A stretch of DNA of 64,000 bases from Mariprofundus ferrooxydans PV-1 (GTDB taxonomy: Bacteria > Pseudomonadota > Zetaproteobacteria > Mariprofundales > Mariprofundaceae), in the NCBI RefSeq assembly GCF_000153765.1, contig NZ_DS022294.1, forward strand, positions 314,150-378,149, in the 5' to 3' direction. Positions 924-26,902 of this stretch are shown piece after piece (within the stretch, counting starts at the first letter, position 1; each line of letters opens with the position of its first letter). The position numbers and the translations under genes are program-made. The notes beneath the pieces were generated by a model. That model ran no database searches. It was not told the DNA's origin and was given only the letters and a program-made list of their open reading frames with translations.

Positions 924-2202
924 CACTGTTGTCCGGTTAAGCATTGATGAGGCACATTTGTCGCTGATTTATGGCGAATCGTCGCTTTGGCGGCGGTGGG
1001 GAATCAGCCAGCAATTCGAGCAAGTTTCGTCGCTGCATGAGGTTGACGGAAACGAGTCTCGCCAGTTGTTGCATGGATCGGCTTGCAGGCAGGATCCTTC
1101 TTGCCATGTGCAGCAGCAGATAGGCGATCATGGCAATGATAATCTGGATTTTGACAGCGTTCTCGGATGTGCCGATGAAGCGTTTGATCTTCAGGTTCTG
1201 TTTAATCCACCTGAAGAACAGTTCAATTTGCCAGCGCTGTTTGTACAGGGCTGCGATGGCTCCGGCGGAGCGCTTCAGGTCATTGGTGATAAAGACAAGC
1301 TTCTTGCCATCTTCCTCATGCACGAAGCAGATGCGGCGCAGGATGGTCGGACATTCCTTCCTGCCTTTGGCCGATGACAGACGGATATGCTGGTCTTCCA
1401 ATACACCGTCATCTGATACAGGGAGCGTTGCCACTACCTCGAATTCCGCGTTGCGCTTCATGCGGCTGACGAAGCGGATATCCCTTTGTGTCAGGTCATG
1501 GAACCATGCGTAATCGTTGTAGGCCCTGTCGAACACATAAGTGGCGCCGGGCAACAGGGGCATGTGCTCCGCAGCCTTCTTGTCATGCTTTTTGGCTGCG
1601 GTGATGGAAAAGAAGGTGGGAACCTGCGCATCAGGGTCATACACCGTATGCACCTTCACGCCCGATTTGCCGGTGCGGAAGCTCGCCCATTCAAACTGAT
1701 GCTTGCACAGGTCAATCGTCGTGGAGTCAATCAGCCGAACGGCATCCTTGCGGTGGATGCCCTTGCCGCGAAACTGATGCAAAAGCCAGTAAAACAGCTC
1801 CAGATACATGCCCGCAGAGCGCTTCACATTGGCATCAGCAAGCGTGGAACGCCTCACCGAGCCTGCTCCCAGGTGATAGTGCCTGCTGGCGTGACTTTCC
1901 CATGCCGAAACCACATCCCGCAGAGACTGCCGGGAGCAAAGCTGCGCATAGAGCATGACGCAAAACTGCGTCCAGCAGGACAAACTGCGGATACGCCTGT
2001 CACCATCATAACGCCTGACAACCTCCTCAAAACGGTGACGCGGAATCACTCTGAGCAATTGATGAAAAACCGTGTTAGCATGCTTCATGGTCTGAATTCT
2101 CCGGGGCGTAGATTTGCTGTCTCAATCACAATAAATCTACCATATCCCTTGGGAATTCAGACCTTTTTTTATCCCTCCGGATTCCTTAACCGGACAGCCG
2201 TG
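924..2202 (-). mobile_element. Complete IS4-family insertion sequence (1279 bp)
   Basis: Terminal inverted repeats of 18 bp with 16 identities bound the element: CACTGTTGTCCGGTTAAG at 924-941 and the complement of CACGGCTGTCCGGTTAAG at 2185-2202. It is flanked by the direct repeat AAGGAAATT and carries one intact transposase, so it looks structurally complete. The left inverted repeat overlaps the transposase stop codon. It is inserted between codons 633 and 634 of the type ISP gene, in the same orientation as that gene. Confidence 0.9.
937..2088 (-). CDS. IS4-family transposase
   Basis: This 383-residue transposase has an N-terminal DUF4372-like DNA-binding region (VFHQLLRVIPRHRFEEVVRR) and a DDE catalytic domain. 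The triad is visible: Asp in RLIDSTTIDL, Asp in YVFDRAYNDY, and Glu in YKQRWQIELFFRWIKQ, the last within the YREK-like signature of the IS4 family. Length is normal for the ISPepr1-like group and no internal stop is seen, so the protein is probably functional. It mobilises the element at 924-2202. No other complete copy was noticed in the window. Confidence 0.92.
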   Translation of the reverse strand: MKHANTVFHQLLRVIPRHRFEEVVRRYDGDRRIRSLSCWTQFCVMLYAQLCSRQSLRDVVSAWESHASRHYHLGAGSVRRSTLADANVKRSAGMYLELFYWLLHQFRGKGIHRKDAVRLIDSTTIDLCKHQFEWASFRTGKSGVKVHTVYDPDAQVPTFFSITAAKKHDKKAAEHMPLLPGATYVFDRAYNDYAWFHDLTQRDIRFVSRMKRNAEFEVVATLPVSDDGVLEDQHIRLSSAKGRKECPTILRRICFVHEEDGKKLVFITNDLKRSAGAIAALYKQRWQIELFFRWIKQNLKIKRFIGTSENAVKIQIIIAMIAYLLLHMARRILPASRSMQQLARLVSVNLMQRRNLLELLADSPPPPKRRFAINQRQMCLINA

Positions 2203-2211
2203 AAGGAAATT
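2203..2211. repeat. Right target-site duplication of the IS4 element
   Basis: AAGGAAATT directly abuts the right inverted repeat and is identical to 915-923. Confidence 0.85.
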
Positions 2212-4101
2212 AATTGAAACACCCTGTTGAATATCGAACACGTTCTCGTCTTTGCTGCCATCAGGCGAAACTTCTTTTTTCTTGCTGTTACCATGCAAAT
2301 CGATGGTATAAATCTTGTCGTAAGTCTTAAGCAAGTTCCAGCGCATGCCGCGAAAGGTCGGATTATCCAGAAAGCCATGTGGATTAATGAAAGCCAATAT
2401 GCCTTCGCCATTCTTTTCAATGAAGTGCTGGCCGTAGCGCATGAATTTCACATAATCATCATTAATCCATTTCGGATTGCGTTCTTTCAGTTTCTCTTTA
2501 CCACCGGGTTCCTTTTTATAATCCTCCATAAGCTTCATAATCCACTCACCCTTATTGGCGCTTTCACCACTGTACGGCGGATTACCCATCACTACCATCA
2601 CGGGGGTGTCGCGTTTGATATGATTGGCTTCATTGGCTTCGGTACTTAGCCATGAGGAAAAGAGCGTGCCTGTATCGGGATGATGCTCTTCCAGTGAATT
2701 GGTCAGATAAATGTTTAAGCGCTGTTCCTTATTGGCCACAAAGCCAGTATCACGCAGCAGCATATCCAGCTTTAGATGTGCCATGGCATAGGATGCCATC
2801 AACAGCTCAAAACCATTGAGGCGCGGAATCAGGTGTTCATCGACATAACTGCTCCATGCGCCTTGCATGGCTTTGAACTTGCCGTTGTATATGAATTTGA
2901 CCACTTCGGCCAAGAAGGTGCCCGTACCGGTGGCCGGATCAAGCACCTGAACCTTATGCACTTCTTTTTTCTGGATAAGCGGTTTGCCTTTGTTGCGCCC
3001 TTTGCTGATAGCCGCGCCTTGTACCTGTACTTCAATGGTGGTCTTGGAAGTATCCGCAAGTCCGTCTTTTAAGGCAAACTCGGTTTTCAGAATTTCATCG
3101 ACGCCGCGCACGATGAACGAAACTACCGGCTCCGGTGTGTACCAGACCCCCCTGGCTTTCCTTAGTTTTGGATCATATTCGGCCAGAAATGTCTCATAAA
3201 AATGGATGATCGGATCATGGGTTTGCGTGGCGCGTCCAAAATTCTTTAGCAGCGCCTTCACATCCGTGGCACGGAACACATCGGCAAGGTTGTCCACTGT
3301 GGTTTTGATACGCTCGTCAATATCGGCACCGGCTACATGATTGAACAGCTTGCGAAGAAAAGGATTGCTCTTGGGAATCAGCTCCGCTGCCTCCTGGCGG
3401 CTGAATGTATCCAGCGTATCATCATGCAGGCGGGCAGCGAACATGCCGTAGGCCAGTGTTTGCGCATAGATATCAGCGAATGCAGCAGGCTTTAGATCAT
3501 GGATCAGAACGTCCTTGAACGTTTTGAACTGCTGTTGCAGTGCCGTGTTATCCTGAGTCTGTTCATCGGAAGTAATTGCTTTTTCGAGGATGATTTGTAG
3601 CAGCCGAGCTTTGGCTGCCATCATGGAGGCCAGTTTTTTCGGTGAGCGAATCGTCTGACCGACAAATGTGCAGAAGTTCTGGAGCAGAGTGGTTAGTTCT
3701 ACAAAGTTGTCAGGAATCGGAATGACTCTGCCCTTTTCGATAGAGGCAATGCGAACTTCGTGTTCCAATTCCCCATTTTGAAAGAACTGAAAGCAGAGAT
3801 AATCCGTAATAATCAGGTTGTCCAGGGCCTTGCGATAACGATCAAATTGATCCTTGTAGGTTTTGCTGTTCAGGTCTTTTCCGATGTCTTTGGCTTCGAT
3901 AAAACCAACCGGAATATTTTTTCGGGTAATCACATAGTCCGGGTTGCCGCAGTCGGTTACCTGTGACGGTTCGTTGATGACTTCGATTTGAGGAACAAGT
4001 TCCCGTATCAGTGATTCAAGATCACCCCGGTAAGCATGTTCGCTGGCCATGCCAGAGATGTAGCGATTGTTAATCGTTTCAATGTACTGGCTCAGGCTCA
4101 T
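2203..4101 (-). pseudogene. Type ISP restriction-modification enzyme, N-terminal two thirds (IS-disrupted)
   Basis: The original frame starts at 4101 (MSLSQYIETINN) and gives 633 native residues. The ORF then runs about 21 codons into the IS4 element before a stop at 2137. An N-terminal Mrr-like nuclease region is seen around residues 50-75 (CGNPDYVITR, then GFIEAKD: D55 and E69-x-K71 of a PD-(D/E)xK site). The helical linker is followed by an adenine N6-methyltransferase domain with motif I DPATGTGTF at 388-396 and motif IV NPPY at 507-510. No helicase motifs are seen between nuclease and methylase, so the parent is a short ISP/type IIG-like enzyme. The target-recognition C-terminus is lost to two IS insertions. 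Residual methylation is unlikely without it. Confidence 0.85.
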
Positions 4102-4571: not shown

Positions 4572-5912
4572 ATGGCCATATTTCACCTCTCGCTCAAAAT
4601 CGGAGCAAAGGGCAAGGCCGCCCCGCACTTCAACTACATCACCGCATCGGAAAAATATGCAGCCAGGCGCGGCGTGGTGCATCTCGAGCACGGCAATATG
4701 CCGCTATGGGCTGCCGCCAAGCCTGCTCTGTTCTGGCAGGCATCGGACGAGTTCGAGCGGGCCAATGGCACAGCCTATCGGGAGTTGGAGGTCTCTTTGC
4801 CCCGAGAGCTGCCGCTTGCGCAGCAGGTCGAGCTTGCCCGCCAGCTTGCAGAGGAAGCATGCGGTAACCAGCACGCCTTCAGCTTTGCCATTCACCATGC
4901 CAAAGCCAGCGATGGCGGCATGAATCCCCATGTGCACCTTCAGTTTTCCGAGCGTATTGACGATGGCATCGAGCGAGACCGGCAGCACTATTTCAAGCGT
5001 GCCAACAGGAAAGAGCCAGAGAAAGGCGGCTGTGCAAAGGACAGAAGCTGGCAGGCCAGTAAGCGCGGCAAGCAGAAGGTCGCCGAATCAAGCGAGCGCC
5101 TGCTGGACATTCGCAAAAACTGGGAAACGATGTGTAACAAGGCGCTGGCAGAATTCGGCAGTGATGCCCGCATCGACCACCGCAGCCATGAGGCGCGCGA
5201 GATAGAAACCGCTCCACAGCCCAAGGTGGGCGCGAAGTCGTGGCATCTGTTCCGGCGCACCGGTGAGAAGAACGAGCGCTATTGTCGCTGGGAACAGGTC
5301 ATCGCCAGCAACAACGCCATTATCACCAGCGCTGCCAGCAAGCCATCCGCGCAGGAGCGCTATCACGATGCCATGCAGGAACTGCAAACCGTGCAGCGCC
5401 AGCTTGCAGCCCTTCAGCCTGTTCGCAGACCGGACAAGTCAGCCATCCTCAGGCGCATTGCCGAGAATCAAAAGCGTGTCAGGCGACTGGATGATGAGAT
5501 ATGGCAGCTTGAGCATAACACCATCCACAAAGCCTATGACGCGATGGTGAATGCCCGATGCAGGCGCGATGCTGGCAGCAATTTCTTCATGCGAGCATGG
5601 AACCGCTTTTACTATGGCGGCGACTATGTCCGCCTCACTGATGCTTATGAGAAGGTGCTGAAGCGGAAGGCTGACAAGACCAGAGAGCGCAACAACCTGA
5701 TTGAACGTATTTGCCAAAACCCGAAGGCACAAGCCAAGGCTTCCGCCGATTACGCAAGGCAGGCAAAGGAGTATCAAGCCTATATCCGGCGCAAGGTCGA
5801 ACTGGAGCGGGATTTGCAGTCAGCGCAAAGACAGGTGCAAGCCTGCAAACGATTGTTGCCACAGGCGCAGACGCAGCGCCGGAATGACGCTGGCCTGCAT
5901 CTGACCATATAG
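4572..5912 (+). CDS. mobA: MobA/MobL-family relaxase
   Basis: This 446-residue protein would nick at oriT and pilot the strand during mobilization by a helper conjugation system. The N-terminal relaxase domain is recognisable: MAIFHLSLKIG strand, an early conserved Tyr in FNYITASEKYA, a histidine in AFSFAIHHAKASDGG, and the metal-binding NPHVHLQFSER (HxH). The C-terminal half is a long charged helical region (about residues 270-440) rich in Gln, Arg and Lys. It lacks the primase domain found in the IncQ fusion protein. An AAGGAGG lies 11 nt before the ATG. No mating-pair-formation genes are visible, so the element is mobilizable rather than self-transmissible as far as the window shows. Confidence 0.9.
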   Translation: MAIFHLSLKIGAKGKAAPHFNYITASEKYAARRGVVHLEHGNMPLWAAAKPALFWQASDEFERANGTAYRELEVSLPRELPLAQQVELARQLAEEACGNQHAFSFAIHHAKASDGGMNPHVHLQFSERIDDGIERDRQHYFKRANRKEPEKGGCAKDRSWQASKRGKQKVAESSERLLDIRKNWETMCNKALAEFGSDARIDHRSHEAREIETAPQPKVGAKSWHLFRRTGEKNERYCRWEQVIASNNAIITSAASKPSAQERYHDAMQELQTVQRQLAALQPVRRPDKSAILRRIAENQKRVRRLDDEIWQLEHNTIHKAYDAMVNARCRRDAGSNFFMRAWNRFYYGGDYVRLTDAYEKVLKRKADKTRERNNLIERICQNPKAQAKASADYARQAKEYQAYIRRKVELERDLQSAQRQVQACKRLLPQAQTQRRNDAGLHLTI

Positions 5913-10054: not shown

Positions 10055-11020
<966 letters not shown>

Positions 11021-11057
11021 CTAGCCGGATGAACGGCGAATGAGAACCGCAGAATCG

Positions 11058-11939
11058 TTAATCCCTGTATCTTAATGTCAGCTCATCATACATATCGATG
11101 CGCCGGTCACGCAGGAAAGGCCACATACGGCGCACCGCCTCGCTGCGTCTCAGGTCGACATCGACCACCATCACACTCTGCTCATCAGCTGCTGCAACAC
11201 TGAGCATTTCACCCTGCGGCCCAACCACAAAGCTGCCGCCCCAGAACTCCAGACCGCTCTCCTCATACGGATGCGCTTCAAAACCGGTACGATTGGCACA
11301 GATCACCGGCAGGCCATTCGCCACGGCATGTCCGCGCATACTGATCTCCCAGGCATCGCGCTGACGCAGCTGTTCATCCTCAGGCTCCGAGGGAGCCCAG
11401 CCGATGGCAGTCGGATAGATCAGCATATCGGCTCCGGCCATGGCCATTAACCGGGCGGCCTCCGGGTACCACTGATCCCAGCAGACCAGTACGCCGAGGC
11501 GGCCCACCGATGTATCAATCGGCTCAAAGCCGATATCGCCGGGGGTAAAATAGAACTTCTCGTAATAGGCCGGATCATCCGGGATATGCATCTTGCGATA
11601 GATGCCGGCAATGCTGCCATCCGCCTCCAGCACCACAGCCGTATTGTGATAGAGCCCTGCAGCCCGCCGCTCGAACAGCGAGGCAACAATCACCACCCCG
11701 AGCTCGGCCGCTACCGCGCCCAGAATATCGCTGGACGGCCCCGGTATCGGTTCGGCCAGATCAAAATAGCCCGGATCTTCAACCTGACAAAAATAGGGCG
11801 TGCCATGCAGCTCCTGCAACACAACCAGCCTTGCTCCCATGGCTGCCGCCTCACGTATACCCTCGATACTGGCGGCCAGATTGGCCGCCTTATCCTCGCT
11901 ACAGCGCTGCTGCACTACACCCGTTCGTAATACACTCAT
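11058..11939 (-). CDS. aguB: N-carbamoylputrescine amidase
   Basis: This 293-residue nitrilase-superfamily hydrolase converts N-carbamoylputrescine to putrescine, CO2 and ammonia. The Glu-Lys-Cys triad is visible in VVLQELHG, IYRKMHIP and VLVCWDQWYPE, and the C-terminal GSFVVGPQGE and DLRRSEAVRRMWPFLRDRR segments are typical of AguB. It overlaps the aguA stop by 4 bp, so the two are translationally coupled and together convert agmatine to putrescine. The order aguA then aguB is common in proteobacteria. Confidence 0.95.
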   Translation of the reverse strand: MSVLRTGVVQQRCSEDKAANLAASIEGIREAAAMGARLVVLQELHGTPYFCQVEDPGYFDLAEPIPGPSSDILGAVAAELGVVIVASLFERRAAGLYHNTAVVLEADGSIAGIYRKMHIPDDPAYYEKFYFTPGDIGFEPIDTSVGRLGVLVCWDQWYPEAARLMAMAGADMLIYPTAIGWAPSEPEDEQLRQRDAWEISMRGHAVANGLPVICANRTGFEAHPYEESGLEFWGGSFVVGPQGEMLSVAAADEQSVMVVDVDLRRSEAVRRMWPFLRDRRIDMYDELTLRYRD

Positions 11940-19296: not shown

Positions 19297-19495
19297 GCGT
19301 TGGCTCAGATCAGCTGTGAGAGTGTATCTCTCTCGTCATAGCTATCGCACAGAGCCTTCGCTATGAATACGCTCCGTGGTCTCAGCTCTCCCTCGTGGCA
19401 AAAATCGAGAACGTTACATCCGCCATTCAAGGCCTAGAGCCCCCCGCCCACTTTTAATGAATAGCCCACCTAGAATTAAACCAAAGGAAAATAAT

Positions 19496-22400
19496 CTATA
19501 TCAATAATCTATAATCGTATGGAGCAGCACCAAATCCGCTGAGATATGTTCCAACACGTGCAATTGCACTAGCTGAAGTAAGAGTCACAGGAAGTTGTGA
19601 ATAGTAATCGAAATTGTTCCAGTCCATTTTTGATAAGCCTAAAATCTCTGAAGCCACTTGCTCCAAGTCAGACTGCCCTAAATGTCTACGAATCAATAAC
19701 GGCGAAGGAATTCGACGCTTACCTTGATAATACTTCCAGTTTGGATTTAGTACGTTTGGAGCCGCACCGTGCACCCAAAGCAATGCAGAATGTTTATCCA
19801 AAACAATGGAAGTACCCCTTGGGACAGGAAACGAGTCAATTCCCAACCTCCCACTAATCAACTTGGAAGACAGATATTTTAAAGATGGCTCAATATTTAT
19901 TTCTATGAGCTCAATATTGCTTATGCCTTCTAACCCTTGCGTTAATCCTCGTTTTTCTTCTTGAGTGAAATATGTCTTTTTGTGAATAACAACTCGATCA
20001 GGCAATCTCATTTTTGCATCAAAGAATAGTTGCCGAATAGTTTCTCCTGTCCTGCGAGCATCATCTTCAGACATAAATGGATTCTTACCCCTGTATATAG
20101 GGTTTTCTATACGCCCAAGCCTGAACTGTAGACCTTCTCCTCTTGCGCTATAGAGATGACTGCACCCAAGAAGGACATGATTTCCAATAGATGCTTCTTG
20201 GTCGATGCTATATCCAATTCCAACATATGCTGTTTGGTCGTCTATACAATCTAATCTCCATGGTGACCTTAGAGCTTTTACGTACAGAGCAAGGGACAGC
20301 CACCAATATATGCGACACTTCTGACCGCCAGCCATGGTTTCTTCCCTGATAAATTGTGTACTAAGTCCCATCCGAGCAGCAAATGCTTTTATGTAATCAT
20401 GAAGGTTAAAGTGTTCAATATCAGTACGAACAATATTTAGTTCTCGCCAACGCGATGGGACGAATATGACTACAACTGACCCTGGGTTCAGGCTTCGAAT
20501 CACATTTAGTTCGTTGCATATTCGTCGGCCAAGAGTTTTAGCCGCTTCAAGAGAGTTACTTGGAAGAGAAGAGTCATCCAAATTCATCCAAGTTGGATCT
20601 GAATGGCTTGGTATTGATAATGGTGTTCCAAAAGCATTAGCAAATCCAGGATATTCTAATAGATAATCTTGTTCCGTTCTTGATGGCTTGAATCGCGCAT
20701 GAAGACTCGAAAGAAAAGAAGAAAAGCGCTGAGTGTCTTGCCTTGGACATAGGACTGATACTTCCACATTAGGGGACAGGCCTTCAGTAGTTAGGCTGTA
20801 ATCCCATGGTCGGTTGTACAATAAGCCTTTGAGAGGGTTGGCATCTCGGCACTCAGAACCACCATCTTTAGAAGCAAACACAAGCGGAACATCTGGCAAA
20901 ATAAACCCATGCTGTTTAGCAACACGACGATATTCTAGTGTTAAAGGCGGTTTGTTTTTCTCAATTAAGCCAGCATACCAAGAGGCTTTGGTAATTCGAA
21001 AAACTCCATGACTCCAAGCCTGAATATCGATATTGGTCAGCTTGTCCGTAAAGTGCCTAAGGTCATCATCAAACTCTTTGTTGTGCTGATAACCGTACAC
21101 TTCATTTTTAATAACTTTGCTGGATTCAAAATCTGCTATGGAGCCTTCATTGTTTGTTATAATCACTTCTGGTGTTAAGACAGAGACAATTTTCCCTTGC
21201 AAGTTAATTAACTTAATTGAAACGGCTTTATGGATCTGAAATCGCTTTCCCTGATATAGTTTCCTATCATAAGGGAGTGGTTCCCATAAGCGATTTGTTA
21301 AGTTAGAAGAAAACCCTAATTGCTTCGCAACGGCACATACCAGAGCACGCTGCATGAGTGACCTTATTCGGCCATCACGAGAGAGTTCATATATTGATAA
21401 CTCTACCGATTTAATTTTACCTTTTACTGCAGAGCCTAGAGCATCGATTATCTCTTCAGCATTTCCCAATACTAAAGCTCCATCATTTCCGAAGACGACC
21501 CCACTAACATTTATTGGATCTAGCTTCTCATTAAGCCAATCCCTCGGTTTCGCTCCATCTGGATACTTCAAGTTAATTTTCAGTGCACTTAGAGGCAAAG
21601 ACACTGGATAAGCATTACTTTTGAACAGGGAACTAGGAGGGCTAGCGGGGACAACAAATGGTTTTGTTACAGTTTGCTCGCTACCTAAAACTTGTAGGAG
21701 TGCTTTTGCATTATTGAGCAAGTCTCCTTCGAGATACCGCAAGGATAGCCTAGAAATCATATCATCAAAGCCATCTGTGTTTACATAAAGCGCTTCACGC
21801 CCCGAGGCCTTTATCTCTTGAAGGAAGCTAACTACCTTTTCAGATGGAGATTCGCCATATCCACACCAATATATTCGTGAAGATGATTTATTATTTGTGA
21901 ATGCATGCCGAAGTACAGCCATAAGCGATTCATCTCGACCACTATAACCAGCTACAATGAGGCTGCAGTTTTCCAGTTCTCTTTCTAAAGCTTGCTCTAG
22001 GTTCGACTCTTGCTTTTTTAGTTCGTCCTCTGTGTTTTTCAACTCATCATAGCGAAAGTCCCCATGAAGTGAGACAGTCCGTAATTCCCCCTGAACGTAT
22101 GGTTGAATAGCGCGCTGGCTACAGTCGACCCCAACCTCTACAGTCACCACATCTGAAGCTGCACATGATCTAGCTACCAATCCATCAAAATTTGTAGTCC
22201 AAACGGAACGAATAAGGCCGCCTTTTACTAATAGCGGAAAGAGCTGATACCCTATGTGCGGTTTTGCTTGCCGAACGAATGAAGCAAAAAATTGACGCCT
22301 GTCTTGATGGGTCGGGTAACATGCTTGAGCATAATAAGAATACTCATTATCACTATTTATTGGCGGATAATCCCCCCGCATATCCAACCAGTCCTGAATT

Positions 22401-22639
22401 CGAGTTCTTGTGCCTGGAAGTGAGAGTTCTCCGACTGATTCACTGAGAGAAGGATTATTTGTTACAAATATTTCCCGTTTCCATTCCCAAACACACCTTT
22501 CGGCGCTTGGCATCCCTGAGGAAATTGAAGCTCCAGCGCCAAGAAGGAAGCAATAAGGAGTTCCCTTATTTATTGCTATTGATCGAACAAATGTATCGAT
22601 TGCCAAAGATGCGACTTTACTATTGTTCTGAGTATTCAA
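19496..22639 (-). CDS. Sir2-APAZ-Argonaute fusion (predicted NADase defence protein)
   Basis: One 1047-residue chain. The Sir2 domain (residues 15-340) keeps the NAD site: GAGAS 34-38, TTNFD 148-152, LHGD with His192, GYSGRD 231-236. Residues about 350-650 are APAZ-like. The MID domain (about 690-830) includes VVIFVPSRWRELN and a HDYIKAFAARMGLSTQFIRE basic 5'-phosphate pocket. A PIWI domain ends at FGAAPYDYRLLI. PIWI catalytic acids look lost (YVGIGYSID, RVVIHKKTYFT), as in short Argonautes. By analogy with GsSir2/Ago, guide-directed recognition of invader nucleic acid would trigger NAD+ depletion. The start is TTG at 22639: an in-frame stop lies 24 bp upstream and no ATG/GTG intervenes. Codon use is far more AT-rich than the neighbours, suggesting transfer. 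No partner gene is adjacent. Confidence 0.85.
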   Translation of the reverse strand: MNTQNNSKVASLAIDTFVRSIAINKGTPYCFLLGAGASISSGMPSAERCVWEWKREIFVTNNPSLSESVGELSLPGTRTRIQDWLDMRGDYPPINSDNEYSYYAQACYPTHQDRRQFFASFVRQAKPHIGYQLFPLLVKGGLIRSVWTTNFDGLVARSCAASDVVTVEVGVDCSQRAIQPYVQGELRTVSLHGDFRYDELKNTEDELKKQESNLEQALERELENCSLIVAGYSGRDESLMAVLRHAFTNNKSSSRIYWCGYGESPSEKVVSFLQEIKASGREALYVNTDGFDDMISRLSLRYLEGDLLNNAKALLQVLGSEQTVTKPFVVPASPPSSLFKSNAYPVSLPLSALKINLKYPDGAKPRDWLNEKLDPINVSGVVFGNDGALVLGNAEEIIDALGSAVKGKIKSVELSIYELSRDGRIRSLMQRALVCAVAKQLGFSSNLTNRLWEPLPYDRKLYQGKRFQIHKAVSIKLINLQGKIVSVLTPEVIITNNEGSIADFESSKVIKNEVYGYQHNKEFDDDLRHFTDKLTNIDIQAWSHGVFRITKASWYAGLIEKNKPPLTLEYRRVAKQHGFILPDVPLVFASKDGGSECRDANPLKGLLYNRPWDYSLTTEGLSPNVEVSVLCPRQDTQRFSSFLSSLHARFKPSRTEQDYLLEYPGFANAFGTPLSIPSHSDPTWMNLDDSSLPSNSLEAAKTLGRRICNELNVIRSLNPGSVVVIFVPSRWRELNIVRTDIEHFNLHDYIKAFAARMGLSTQFIREETMAGGQKCRIYWWLSLALYVKALRSPWRLDCIDDQTAYVGIGYSIDQEASIGNHVLLGCSHLYSARGEGLQFRLGRIENPIYRGKNPFMSEDDARRTGETIRQLFFDAKMRLPDRVVIHKKTYFTQEEKRGLTQGLEGISNIELIEINIEPSLKYLSSKLISGRLGIDSFPVPRGTSIVLDKHSALLWVHGAAPNVLNPNWKYYQGKRRIPSPLLIRRHLGQSDLEQVASEILGLSKMDWNNFDYYSQLPVTLTSASAIARVGTYLSGFGAAPYDYRLLI

Positions 22640-22790
22640 TGAAGTTCCGAATTTTAGAACCGCTGTTTAAAGTCATTCCCTCGCCCCCCGAAGAATCAAT
22701 ACAACGATAGACGCTTTCGCACCGAAAGGCAATTTCCATCAAACGGAAACAAAAAAGACACTGCAATGTGGTGGCTAGTTATAGGCGCTA

Positions 22791-25371: not shown

Positions 25372-26902
25372 ATGTTTCAGCTCTACTACGACCATGCCGC
25401 AAAAGCCAAGGATGACGTCCTTTCCGGACTGACTGTTGCCTTCGCACTGGTGCCGGAGGCGGTCGCCTTTGCGTTTGTTGCCGGCGTCAATCCGCTGGTC
25501 GGCCTGTATGGCGCCTTCCTGATGGGGCTACTGACATCACTGGTCGGCGGTCGTCCGGGCATGATTTCCGGCGCGACCGGTTCCATGGCCGTGGTTATGG
25601 TCGCACTGGTTTCACAGCACGGCGTGGAGTATCTCTTTGCCTGTATTATCCTGACCGGTCTGCTGCAGGTGGCCTTCGGCGGCCTGAAATTCGGCAAATA
25701 TATCCGCATGGTGCCCTACCCGGTCATGCTCGGTTTCGTGAACGGGCTGGCGATCGTCATTTTCCTGGCCCAGATGCAGCAGTTTAAGGTCAAGGGCGCT
25801 GACGGTGTCATGCACTGGCTCTCCGGCACACCGCTCTTCAGCATGCTGGCTCTGGTGGCATTAACCATGGCAATTATGTTTTTTCTACCCAAAATCACAC
25901 GCGCCATCCCGGCCGGCCTTGCTGCGATTATCACCATCAGCATGATCGTTATCTTCGGTGGCGTTGATACCAAATCGGTCGGCGACATCGCTGATATCAG
26001 CGGTGGTTTTCCCGGCATTTCATCTGCCTGCCGTACCCTTCACCCTCGAAACGCTCTGGATTATCCTGCCCTATGCCGTGATTCTCGCCGGTGTCGGCCT
26101 GATTGAGTCACTGCTGACGATGAGTGTAGTGGATGAGATGACCGGCACACGCGGTCAGGGCAACCGCGTCTCCATCGGTCAGGGGCTGGCCAACACCGTT
26201 AACGGCTTCTTCGGCGGCATGGGCGGCTGCGCCATGATCGGCCAGACAATGATCAATGTTACTTCCGGCGGCCTGCGCAACCTCTCCGGCATCGCTGCAG
26301 CACTATTTCTGCTGGTATTCATTATGTTCGCCTCCGGACTCATTGCCATGGTGCCTGTGGCGGCACTGGTCGGCCTGATGTTCATGGTCGTGATCGGCAC
26401 TTTTGAGTGGGGCAGCTTTAACCTGCTGAACAAGGTACCACGTGAAGATTCCTTTGTCGGCATCCTGGTGGCTGTTGTCACCGTATTCACCGATCTGGCC
26501 ACGGCCGTCATTATCGGCGTGATTGCAACAGCACTGATCTTCTCATGGAAGCAGGCACGTCATATCTACACCATCCGCGAAGATCAGGCAGACGGCTCCC
26601 GTATCTACCGGATGCACGGGCCGCTCTTCTTTGCCTCCGTACATCGCTTCAGCGACCTGTTTGATCCGGAAAATGATCCGGAAAATGTCTATATTGATTG
26701 CGCCATGTCGCGCATTGCCGATCACTCCGCCATCGAAGCGATCGACAACCTGGCCGAGCGCTATAAAAAAGCAGGCAAGCATCTGCACCTGACCCACCTG
26801 AGTCCGGAGTGTATCAAGTTGCTGACCACTGCCGCCGATCTGGTGGAAGTGAATATGCAGGAAGATCCGAACTACCACGTCGCCGACGACAAGCTGGCTT
26901 AA
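25372..26902 (+). pseudogene. SulP-family anion transporter with STAS domain, frameshifted
   Basis: Two overlapping frames (25372-26106 and 25958-26902) form one SulP transporter. The first gives the N-terminal half ([36 protein letters not shown]). The second gives the rest (GQGLANTVNGFFGGMGGCAM; EDSFVGILVAVVTVFTDLA) and a C-terminal STAS domain (about 26560-26880). They join at CCC 26011-26013: deleting one C gives ...[19 protein letters not shown] in one 509-residue frame. SulP proteins carry sulfate, bicarbonate or similar anions; the substrate cannot be told here. Because the rest is well conserved, this is either a very recent mutation or a base-calling error. Confidence 0.8.

What the first reader, a model, noticed from the sequence alone, without database searches (positions are those of the whole stretch)
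19496..22639. Single-chain Sir2-APAZ-Argonaute defence gene with TTG start
Well-studied Sir2/short-Argonaute systems (GsSir2/Ago type) often use two proteins. Here an intact Sir2 NADase site (GAGAS, TTNFD, LHGD, GYSGRD), an APAZ-like linker region, and a MID-PIWI half lie in one 1047-residue frame. The PIWI acids look lost, implying sensing rather than cutting. The gene stands alone in an AT-rich insert between serB and a DUF455 gene. Sir2-fused short Argonautes are known as a class, so novelty lies in the lineage and sequence, not necessarily in the architecture.
Basis: partly seen in the sequence, partly recalled or inferred. Interest (0 to 1): 0.85.

Follow-up and report, generated by a model that had tools for sequence, protein, structure and literature searches.

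The report
One-piece Sir2-APAZ-Argonaute defence protein
This gene encodes a single-chain bacterial immune protein that probably uses a small RNA guide to detect invading DNA and then destroys the cell's NAD+; it is a good new example of a class (S1A short Argonautes) already described, so it is essentially ordinary.

Summary
It is a fused SIR2-APAZ-MID-PIWI protein. A full-length PADLOC pAgo model matches residues 10-1047 at 1333 bits; the halves match the two separate chains of the solved GsSir2/Ago (SPARSA) complex. The SIR2 residues shown to be essential in GsSir2 are kept (N150, H192, F151, D152, Y232, F291), the MID 5'-phosphate residues are kept (H747, K751, Q762), and all four TtAgo catalytic tetrad positions are replaced (G809, P854, K888, S1024). 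In trees of both halves, fused proteins form one clade (100/99), sister to the split two-gene SPARSA, with the window gene next to Gallionella and Acinetobacter relatives. It has 42% GC against 52-60% around it, sits where six congeners have serB directly beside the DUF455 gene, and no other congener searched has it: a horizontally acquired single-gene cargo. The architecture has been known since 2009 and is named clade S1A. Best reading: RNA-guided DNA sensing that unleashes SIR2 NADase for abortive defence; function inferred, not tested. New member of a known kind; low interest.

The parts
19496..22639 (-). Whole gene: fused SIR2-APAZ-MID-PIWI short Argonaute, 1047 aa, TTG start at 22639, stop at 19496
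21734..22606 (-). SIR2 NADase domain, residues about 12-302; Asn150 codon 22190-22192, His192 codon 22064-22066
   Evidence: PF13289 8.5e-11; GsSir2 PDB chains 3.4e-27; residue mapping
21620..21733 (-). Linker, residues about 303-340 (low-confidence stretch 319-340 in the model)
20906..21619 (-). APAZ (N-L1-L2-like) region, residues about 341-578
   Evidence: hhalign against split SIR2-APAZ C-terminal halves, prob 97.8, E 6.8e-13 over 223 columns, reversed control 0.1; PDB profile alignment
20243..20905 (-). MID domain, residues about 579-799; His747, Lys751, Gln762 match 5'-phosphate-pocket residues of GsAgo
19499..20242 (-). PIWI domain, residues about 800-1047, catalytic tetrad replaced (Gly809, Pro854, Lys888, Ser1024)
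   Evidence: alignment to TtAgo D478/E512/D546/D660
22640..22790 (-). Upstream intergenic stretch after the DUF455 gene; weak GGA ribosome-site match six bases before TTG; no sigma-70-like promoter hit
19297..22790 (.). Inserted low-GC segment between serB and DUF455; the two genes are adjacent in six congeneric genomes

Best explanation
The gene is a horizontally acquired single-chain SPARSA-type immune protein (short pAgo clade S1A). The MID pocket holds the 5'-phosphorylated end of a small RNA guide; the APAZ and PIWI regions cradle the guide-target duplex; the PIWI active site is dead, so target DNA is sensed and not cut. Pairing with invader DNA (plasmid or phage) moves the PIWI sensor loop and releases the SIR2 domain, which hydrolyses NAD+ and stops the cell before the invader spreads. 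Shown here: domain make-up, retained NADase and 5'-phosphate residues, lost tetrad, clade membership, acquisition by this lineage. Inferred by homology to GsSir2/Ago: RNA guide, DNA target, NAD+ loss, abortive outcome.
For: Full-length fused-pAgo model PDLC02384, 1333 bits over 10-1047, matched by all nine fused members. GsSir2/GsAgo chains are the best PDB hits by sequence and fold. Residues essential in GsSir2 (N142, H186, F143, D144, Y226, F287; PMC10781750) map to N150, H192, F151, D152, Y232, F291. GsAgo H166/K170/Q181 map to H747/K751/Q762. Tetrad lost in all fused members. APAZ homology. Fused clade sister to split SPARSA in both trees, 100/99. Fused relatives lie next to a TmtA-like defence protein, type I restriction and a PDC-S28 helicase. 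GC and synteny show acquisition.
Against: No functional test exists for this protein. Base-reading MID residues of GsAgo (D164, N184, R190, N195) are not kept (N745, R765, G771, R776), so guide preference may differ. No promoter-like site was seen upstream. The AlphaFold model is only moderate (mean pLDDT 71, pTM 0.39), so domain packing is not shown.
Confidence: 0.85

Rival explanations
1. Same protein class, but the activating chemistry differs from GsSir2/Ago, for example a different guide 5' end, RNA targets, or activation without tetramer formation because the chains are covalently joined. (A different guide 5' rule alone is compatible with the best explanation; this rival covers the larger departures.)
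For: Four GsAgo residues that read the first guide bases are changed in the window protein.
Against: The 5'-phosphate pocket, SIR2 pocket and overall order of domains are kept; a fused version of a split pAgo (AfAgo) behaved like the split one (PMC10954474).
Confidence: 0.15
2. The gene is intact but silent or poorly expressed cargo: an acquisition with a TTG start, weak ribosome site and no recognisable promoter.
For: TTG start, no promoter-like hit; low GC.
Against: Full-length frame without lesions, 57-58% identity to its nearest relative along the whole length; sigma-70 scans miss many real promoters.
Confidence: 0.1
3. The SIR2 domain is a nuclease or deacetylase and not an NADase, as was once predicted for pAgo-linked SIR2 domains (PMC2743648, PMC6299218).
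For: Early predictions only.
Against: GsSir2/Ago shows NAD+ hydrolysis with the same Asn-His pair and pocket residues, all kept here.
Confidence: 0.03

Closest known systems
Short pAgo clade S1A (SIR2-APAZ-pAgo fusions; PMC12205087, PMC11156904; 102 of 106 APAZ-carrying short pAgos in PMC6299218)
   Same: Same four-part order in one chain of about 1050 aa, inactive PIWI, intact SIR2; full-length PADLOC model match; falls in the fused clade
   Different: Sequence only: best relative found is 58% identical (Candidatus Gallionella acididurans)
SPARSA, GsSir2/Ago of Geobacter sulfurreducens (clade S1B; PDB 8in8, 8jkz, 8jl0, 8y80)
   Same: Homologous SIR2, APAZ, MID and PIWI, same catalytic and phosphate-binding residues
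   Different: Two genes against one; about 20-25% identity in the structural alignments; guide base-reading residues differ
SPARTA (TIR-APAZ/short pAgo) and SPARDA (nuclease-APAZ/short pAgo)
   Same: Homologous MID-PIWI and APAZ plan
   Different: TIR or nuclease effector in place of SIR2; other short pAgos fall on a different tree branch

Membership tests
Short pAgo clade S1A | SIR2, APAZ and MID-PIWI in one polypeptide | tested here: met
Short pAgo clade S1A | Groups with other fused proteins and apart from split SPARSA in phylogeny | tested here: met
   MID-PIWI tree and SIR2 tree, 100/99 support each
Short pAgo clade S1A | PIWI catalytic DEDX tetrad lost | tested here: met
   TtAgo D478/E512/D546/D660 align with G809/P854/K888/S1024; the E position is the least sure
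SPARSA-type mechanism | SIR2 Asn-His pair and NAD+ pocket residues | tested here: met
   N150, H192, F151, D152, Y232, F291
SPARSA-type mechanism | MID pocket for guide 5'-phosphate | tested here: met
   H747, K751, Q762, invariant in the fused set
SPARSA-type mechanism | Same guide base-reading residues as GsAgo (5'-AU bias); a property of GsAgo, not a defining feature of the class | tested here: not met
   D164, N184, R190, N195 become N745, R765, G771, R776
SPARSA-type mechanism | RNA-guided, DNA-triggered NAD+ hydrolysis and abortive defence | not testable with these tools
   needs biochemistry
SPARSA S1B (split) | Two adjacent genes, SIR2-APAZ and pAgo | tested here: not met
   one continuous frame; no second match in the genome

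The most novel reading that the evidence does not exclude
The fused clade, including this member, selects guides by a different 5' rule from GsAgo and is activated with different assembly, because the MID base-reading residues differ and the chains are covalently linked.
Probability: 0.25. Interest if true: 0.35.

Novelty: new member of a known kind. Interest (0 to 1): 0.2.

Why it matters
It adds a well-placed, intact single-chain member with a clear acquisition site (adjacent genes in congeners as the empty state) and a split SPARSA in another species of the same genus, which would make a fair fused-against-split comparison. No solved structure of a fused SIR2-APAZ-pAgo turned up in the PDB searches, so such proteins remain less studied than split ones. 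It changes no concept.

Tried and rejected
Plus-strand reading of the coordinates: stops throughout. Pfam alone finds only SIR2_2, and NCBIfam nothing; PADLOC, PDB profiles and hhalign were needed. Pfam Piwi (PF02171) does not find the window protein, so it was not used as evidence. Long pAgos found in related genomes and in Clostridia (L080-L082) themselves appear inactive and could not serve as tetrad reference; TtAgo from plasmid pTT27 was used. A specific defence hotspot at serB-DUF455 was considered: other congeners carry unrelated genes there or nothing, so it is a variable junction and not shown to be a defence hotspot. No flanking repeats or tRNA explain the insertion. Koopal 2022 is not held in the library.

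Full report
Observation. The stretch 19496-22639 is an uninterrupted 1047-codon frame on the minus strand; on the plus strand it is full of stops. At its base composition a frame of this length has a chance probability of about 4e-30. The named SIR2 motifs are present at residues 34-38, 148-152, 191-194 and 231-236. The only usable starts are TTG at codon 1 and TTG at codon 12; no ATG or GTG lies in the open frame upstream or between them.

Identity. PADLOC's full-length pAgo model PDLC02384 covers residues 10-1047 at 1333 bits, and a second fused model covers 12-1047 at 655 bits. In the PDB the best matches are the two separate chains of the Geobacter GsSir2/Ago complex: GsAgo with residues 598-1045 (5.5e-47) and GsSir2-APAZ with residues 30-302 (3.4e-27). 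A profile of nine fused proteins extends this to 586-1048 (3e-84) and 20-431 plus 454-539 in profile positions. The APAZ region was tested alone: hhalign against the C-terminal parts of eight split SIR2-APAZ proteins gives probability 97.8 and E 6.8e-13 over 223 columns; the reversed control gives 0.1 and the MID control 1.3. AlphaFold gave a moderate model (pLDDT 71.3, pTM 0.39) whose best PDB matches are again the SPARSA chains, followed by SPARDA and SPARTA.

Active sites. Published mutants of GsSir2 show that N142, H186, F143, D144, Y226 and F287 are needed for NADase activity (PMC10781750). They map to N150, H192, F151, D152, Y232 and F291. The 5'-phosphate residues H166 and Q181 map to H747 and Q762; the lysine printed as K70 in that text is E70 in the chain, and the conserved lysine K170 maps to K751, so K170 is probably meant. 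Base-reading residues D164, N184, R190 and N195 are N745, R765, G771 and R776, so the 5'-AU guide bias need not apply. The TtAgo tetrad D478, E512, D546, D660 aligns with G809, P854, K888 and S1024, and no fused member keeps a tetrad acid there. The E position is the least secure column. TtAgo residue numbers are from general knowledge and were checked against the sequence (D, E, D, D at those positions).

Relatives and phylogeny. Full-length fused relatives were found in a Candidatus Gallionella MAG (58%), Acinetobacter (about 50%), Acidobacteria (42%), Longimonas (40%), two Clostridia, Nitrospira and one IMG/VR contig. They are rare: the window genome has one; of 398 genomes drawn from the phylum none but the window's has a full-length fused match, while several carry split pairs. 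A second species of the same genus carries a split SPARSA pair. In maximum-likelihood trees of MID-PIWI and of SIR2 regions, the fused proteins form one clade (100/99 in each) beside the split SPARSA, and the window protein sits with Gallionella and Acinetobacter. A clade spread over Pseudomonadota, Acidobacteriota, Rhodothermota, Bacillota and Nitrospirota, with rare scattered members, points to horizontal transfer.

Setting. The gene has GC 0.42 and GC3 0.33; neighbours have GC 0.52-0.60, and those measured have GC3 0.62-0.66. In six congeners serB and the DUF455 gene are adjacent, with gaps of at most about 160 bases, and others hold unrelated genes between them. The window gene is therefore an insertion at a variable junction. 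No partner gene, tRNA or flanking repeat was found. Relatives sit next to known defence genes: TmtA (L006), type I restriction (L008) and a PDC-S28 helicase (L004).

Mechanism. By homology to GsSir2/Ago the protein should bind a 5'-phosphorylated RNA guide, recognise invader DNA without cutting it, and free its SIR2 domain to hydrolyse NAD+ (PMC10474274, PMC10781750). Whether target binding also drives tetramer formation is reported differently in the literature: one study saw no higher-order assembly (PMC10474274), whereas a later paper (PMC12205087) and PDB entry 8y80 describe a tetramer. This whole paragraph is inferred and not tested here.

Novelty. Fusions of this kind were noted in 2009 (PMC2743648), counted in 2018 (102 of 106 APAZ-carrying short pAgos have SIR2; PMC6299218) and named clade S1A (PMC12205087, PMC11156904). 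From memory, one fused member (Paraburkholderia graminis) was included in the 2022 functional study of short pAgos; that paper was not available here to check. The finding is a sound new member of a known kind.

Noticed in passing
window 25372-26902 (+): A SulP-family transporter is split over two overlapping frames (PF00916 positions 3-232 in one, 228-376 plus STAS in the other), so it carries a frameshift or a sequencing error.
   Followed up: partly
window 937-4101 (-): A type IIG restriction-methyltransferase (2137-4101, whose best stretch matches positions 2-499 of 1096 in PDLC03610) appears cut short beside an ORF (937-2088) that looks like an IS4-type transposase by eye; perhaps an insertion-broken defence gene.
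   Followed up: partly
L073 7504-11813: A congener (G012) carries a split SPARSA pair with a weakly SIR2-like protein gene directly upstream (10737-11813), perhaps part of the same defence locus.
   Followed up: partly
L079 436-5107: The fused relative on an IMG/VR contig lies beside a filamentous-phage-type replication protein (PF05144), suggesting carriage by an inovirus-like element.
   Followed up: partly
L010 4033-5129 and L038 1450-1794: Two broken fused genes: in a Lachnospiraceae contig the frame stops after 139 codons next to a transposase-like ORF, and in G265 only about the first 114 residues remain.
   Followed up: no
window 4572-5912 (+): An ORF whose first 221 residues match PADLOC DpdH at 9e-57, without other Dpd genes seen nearby; probably a general helicase-type match.
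   Followed up: no
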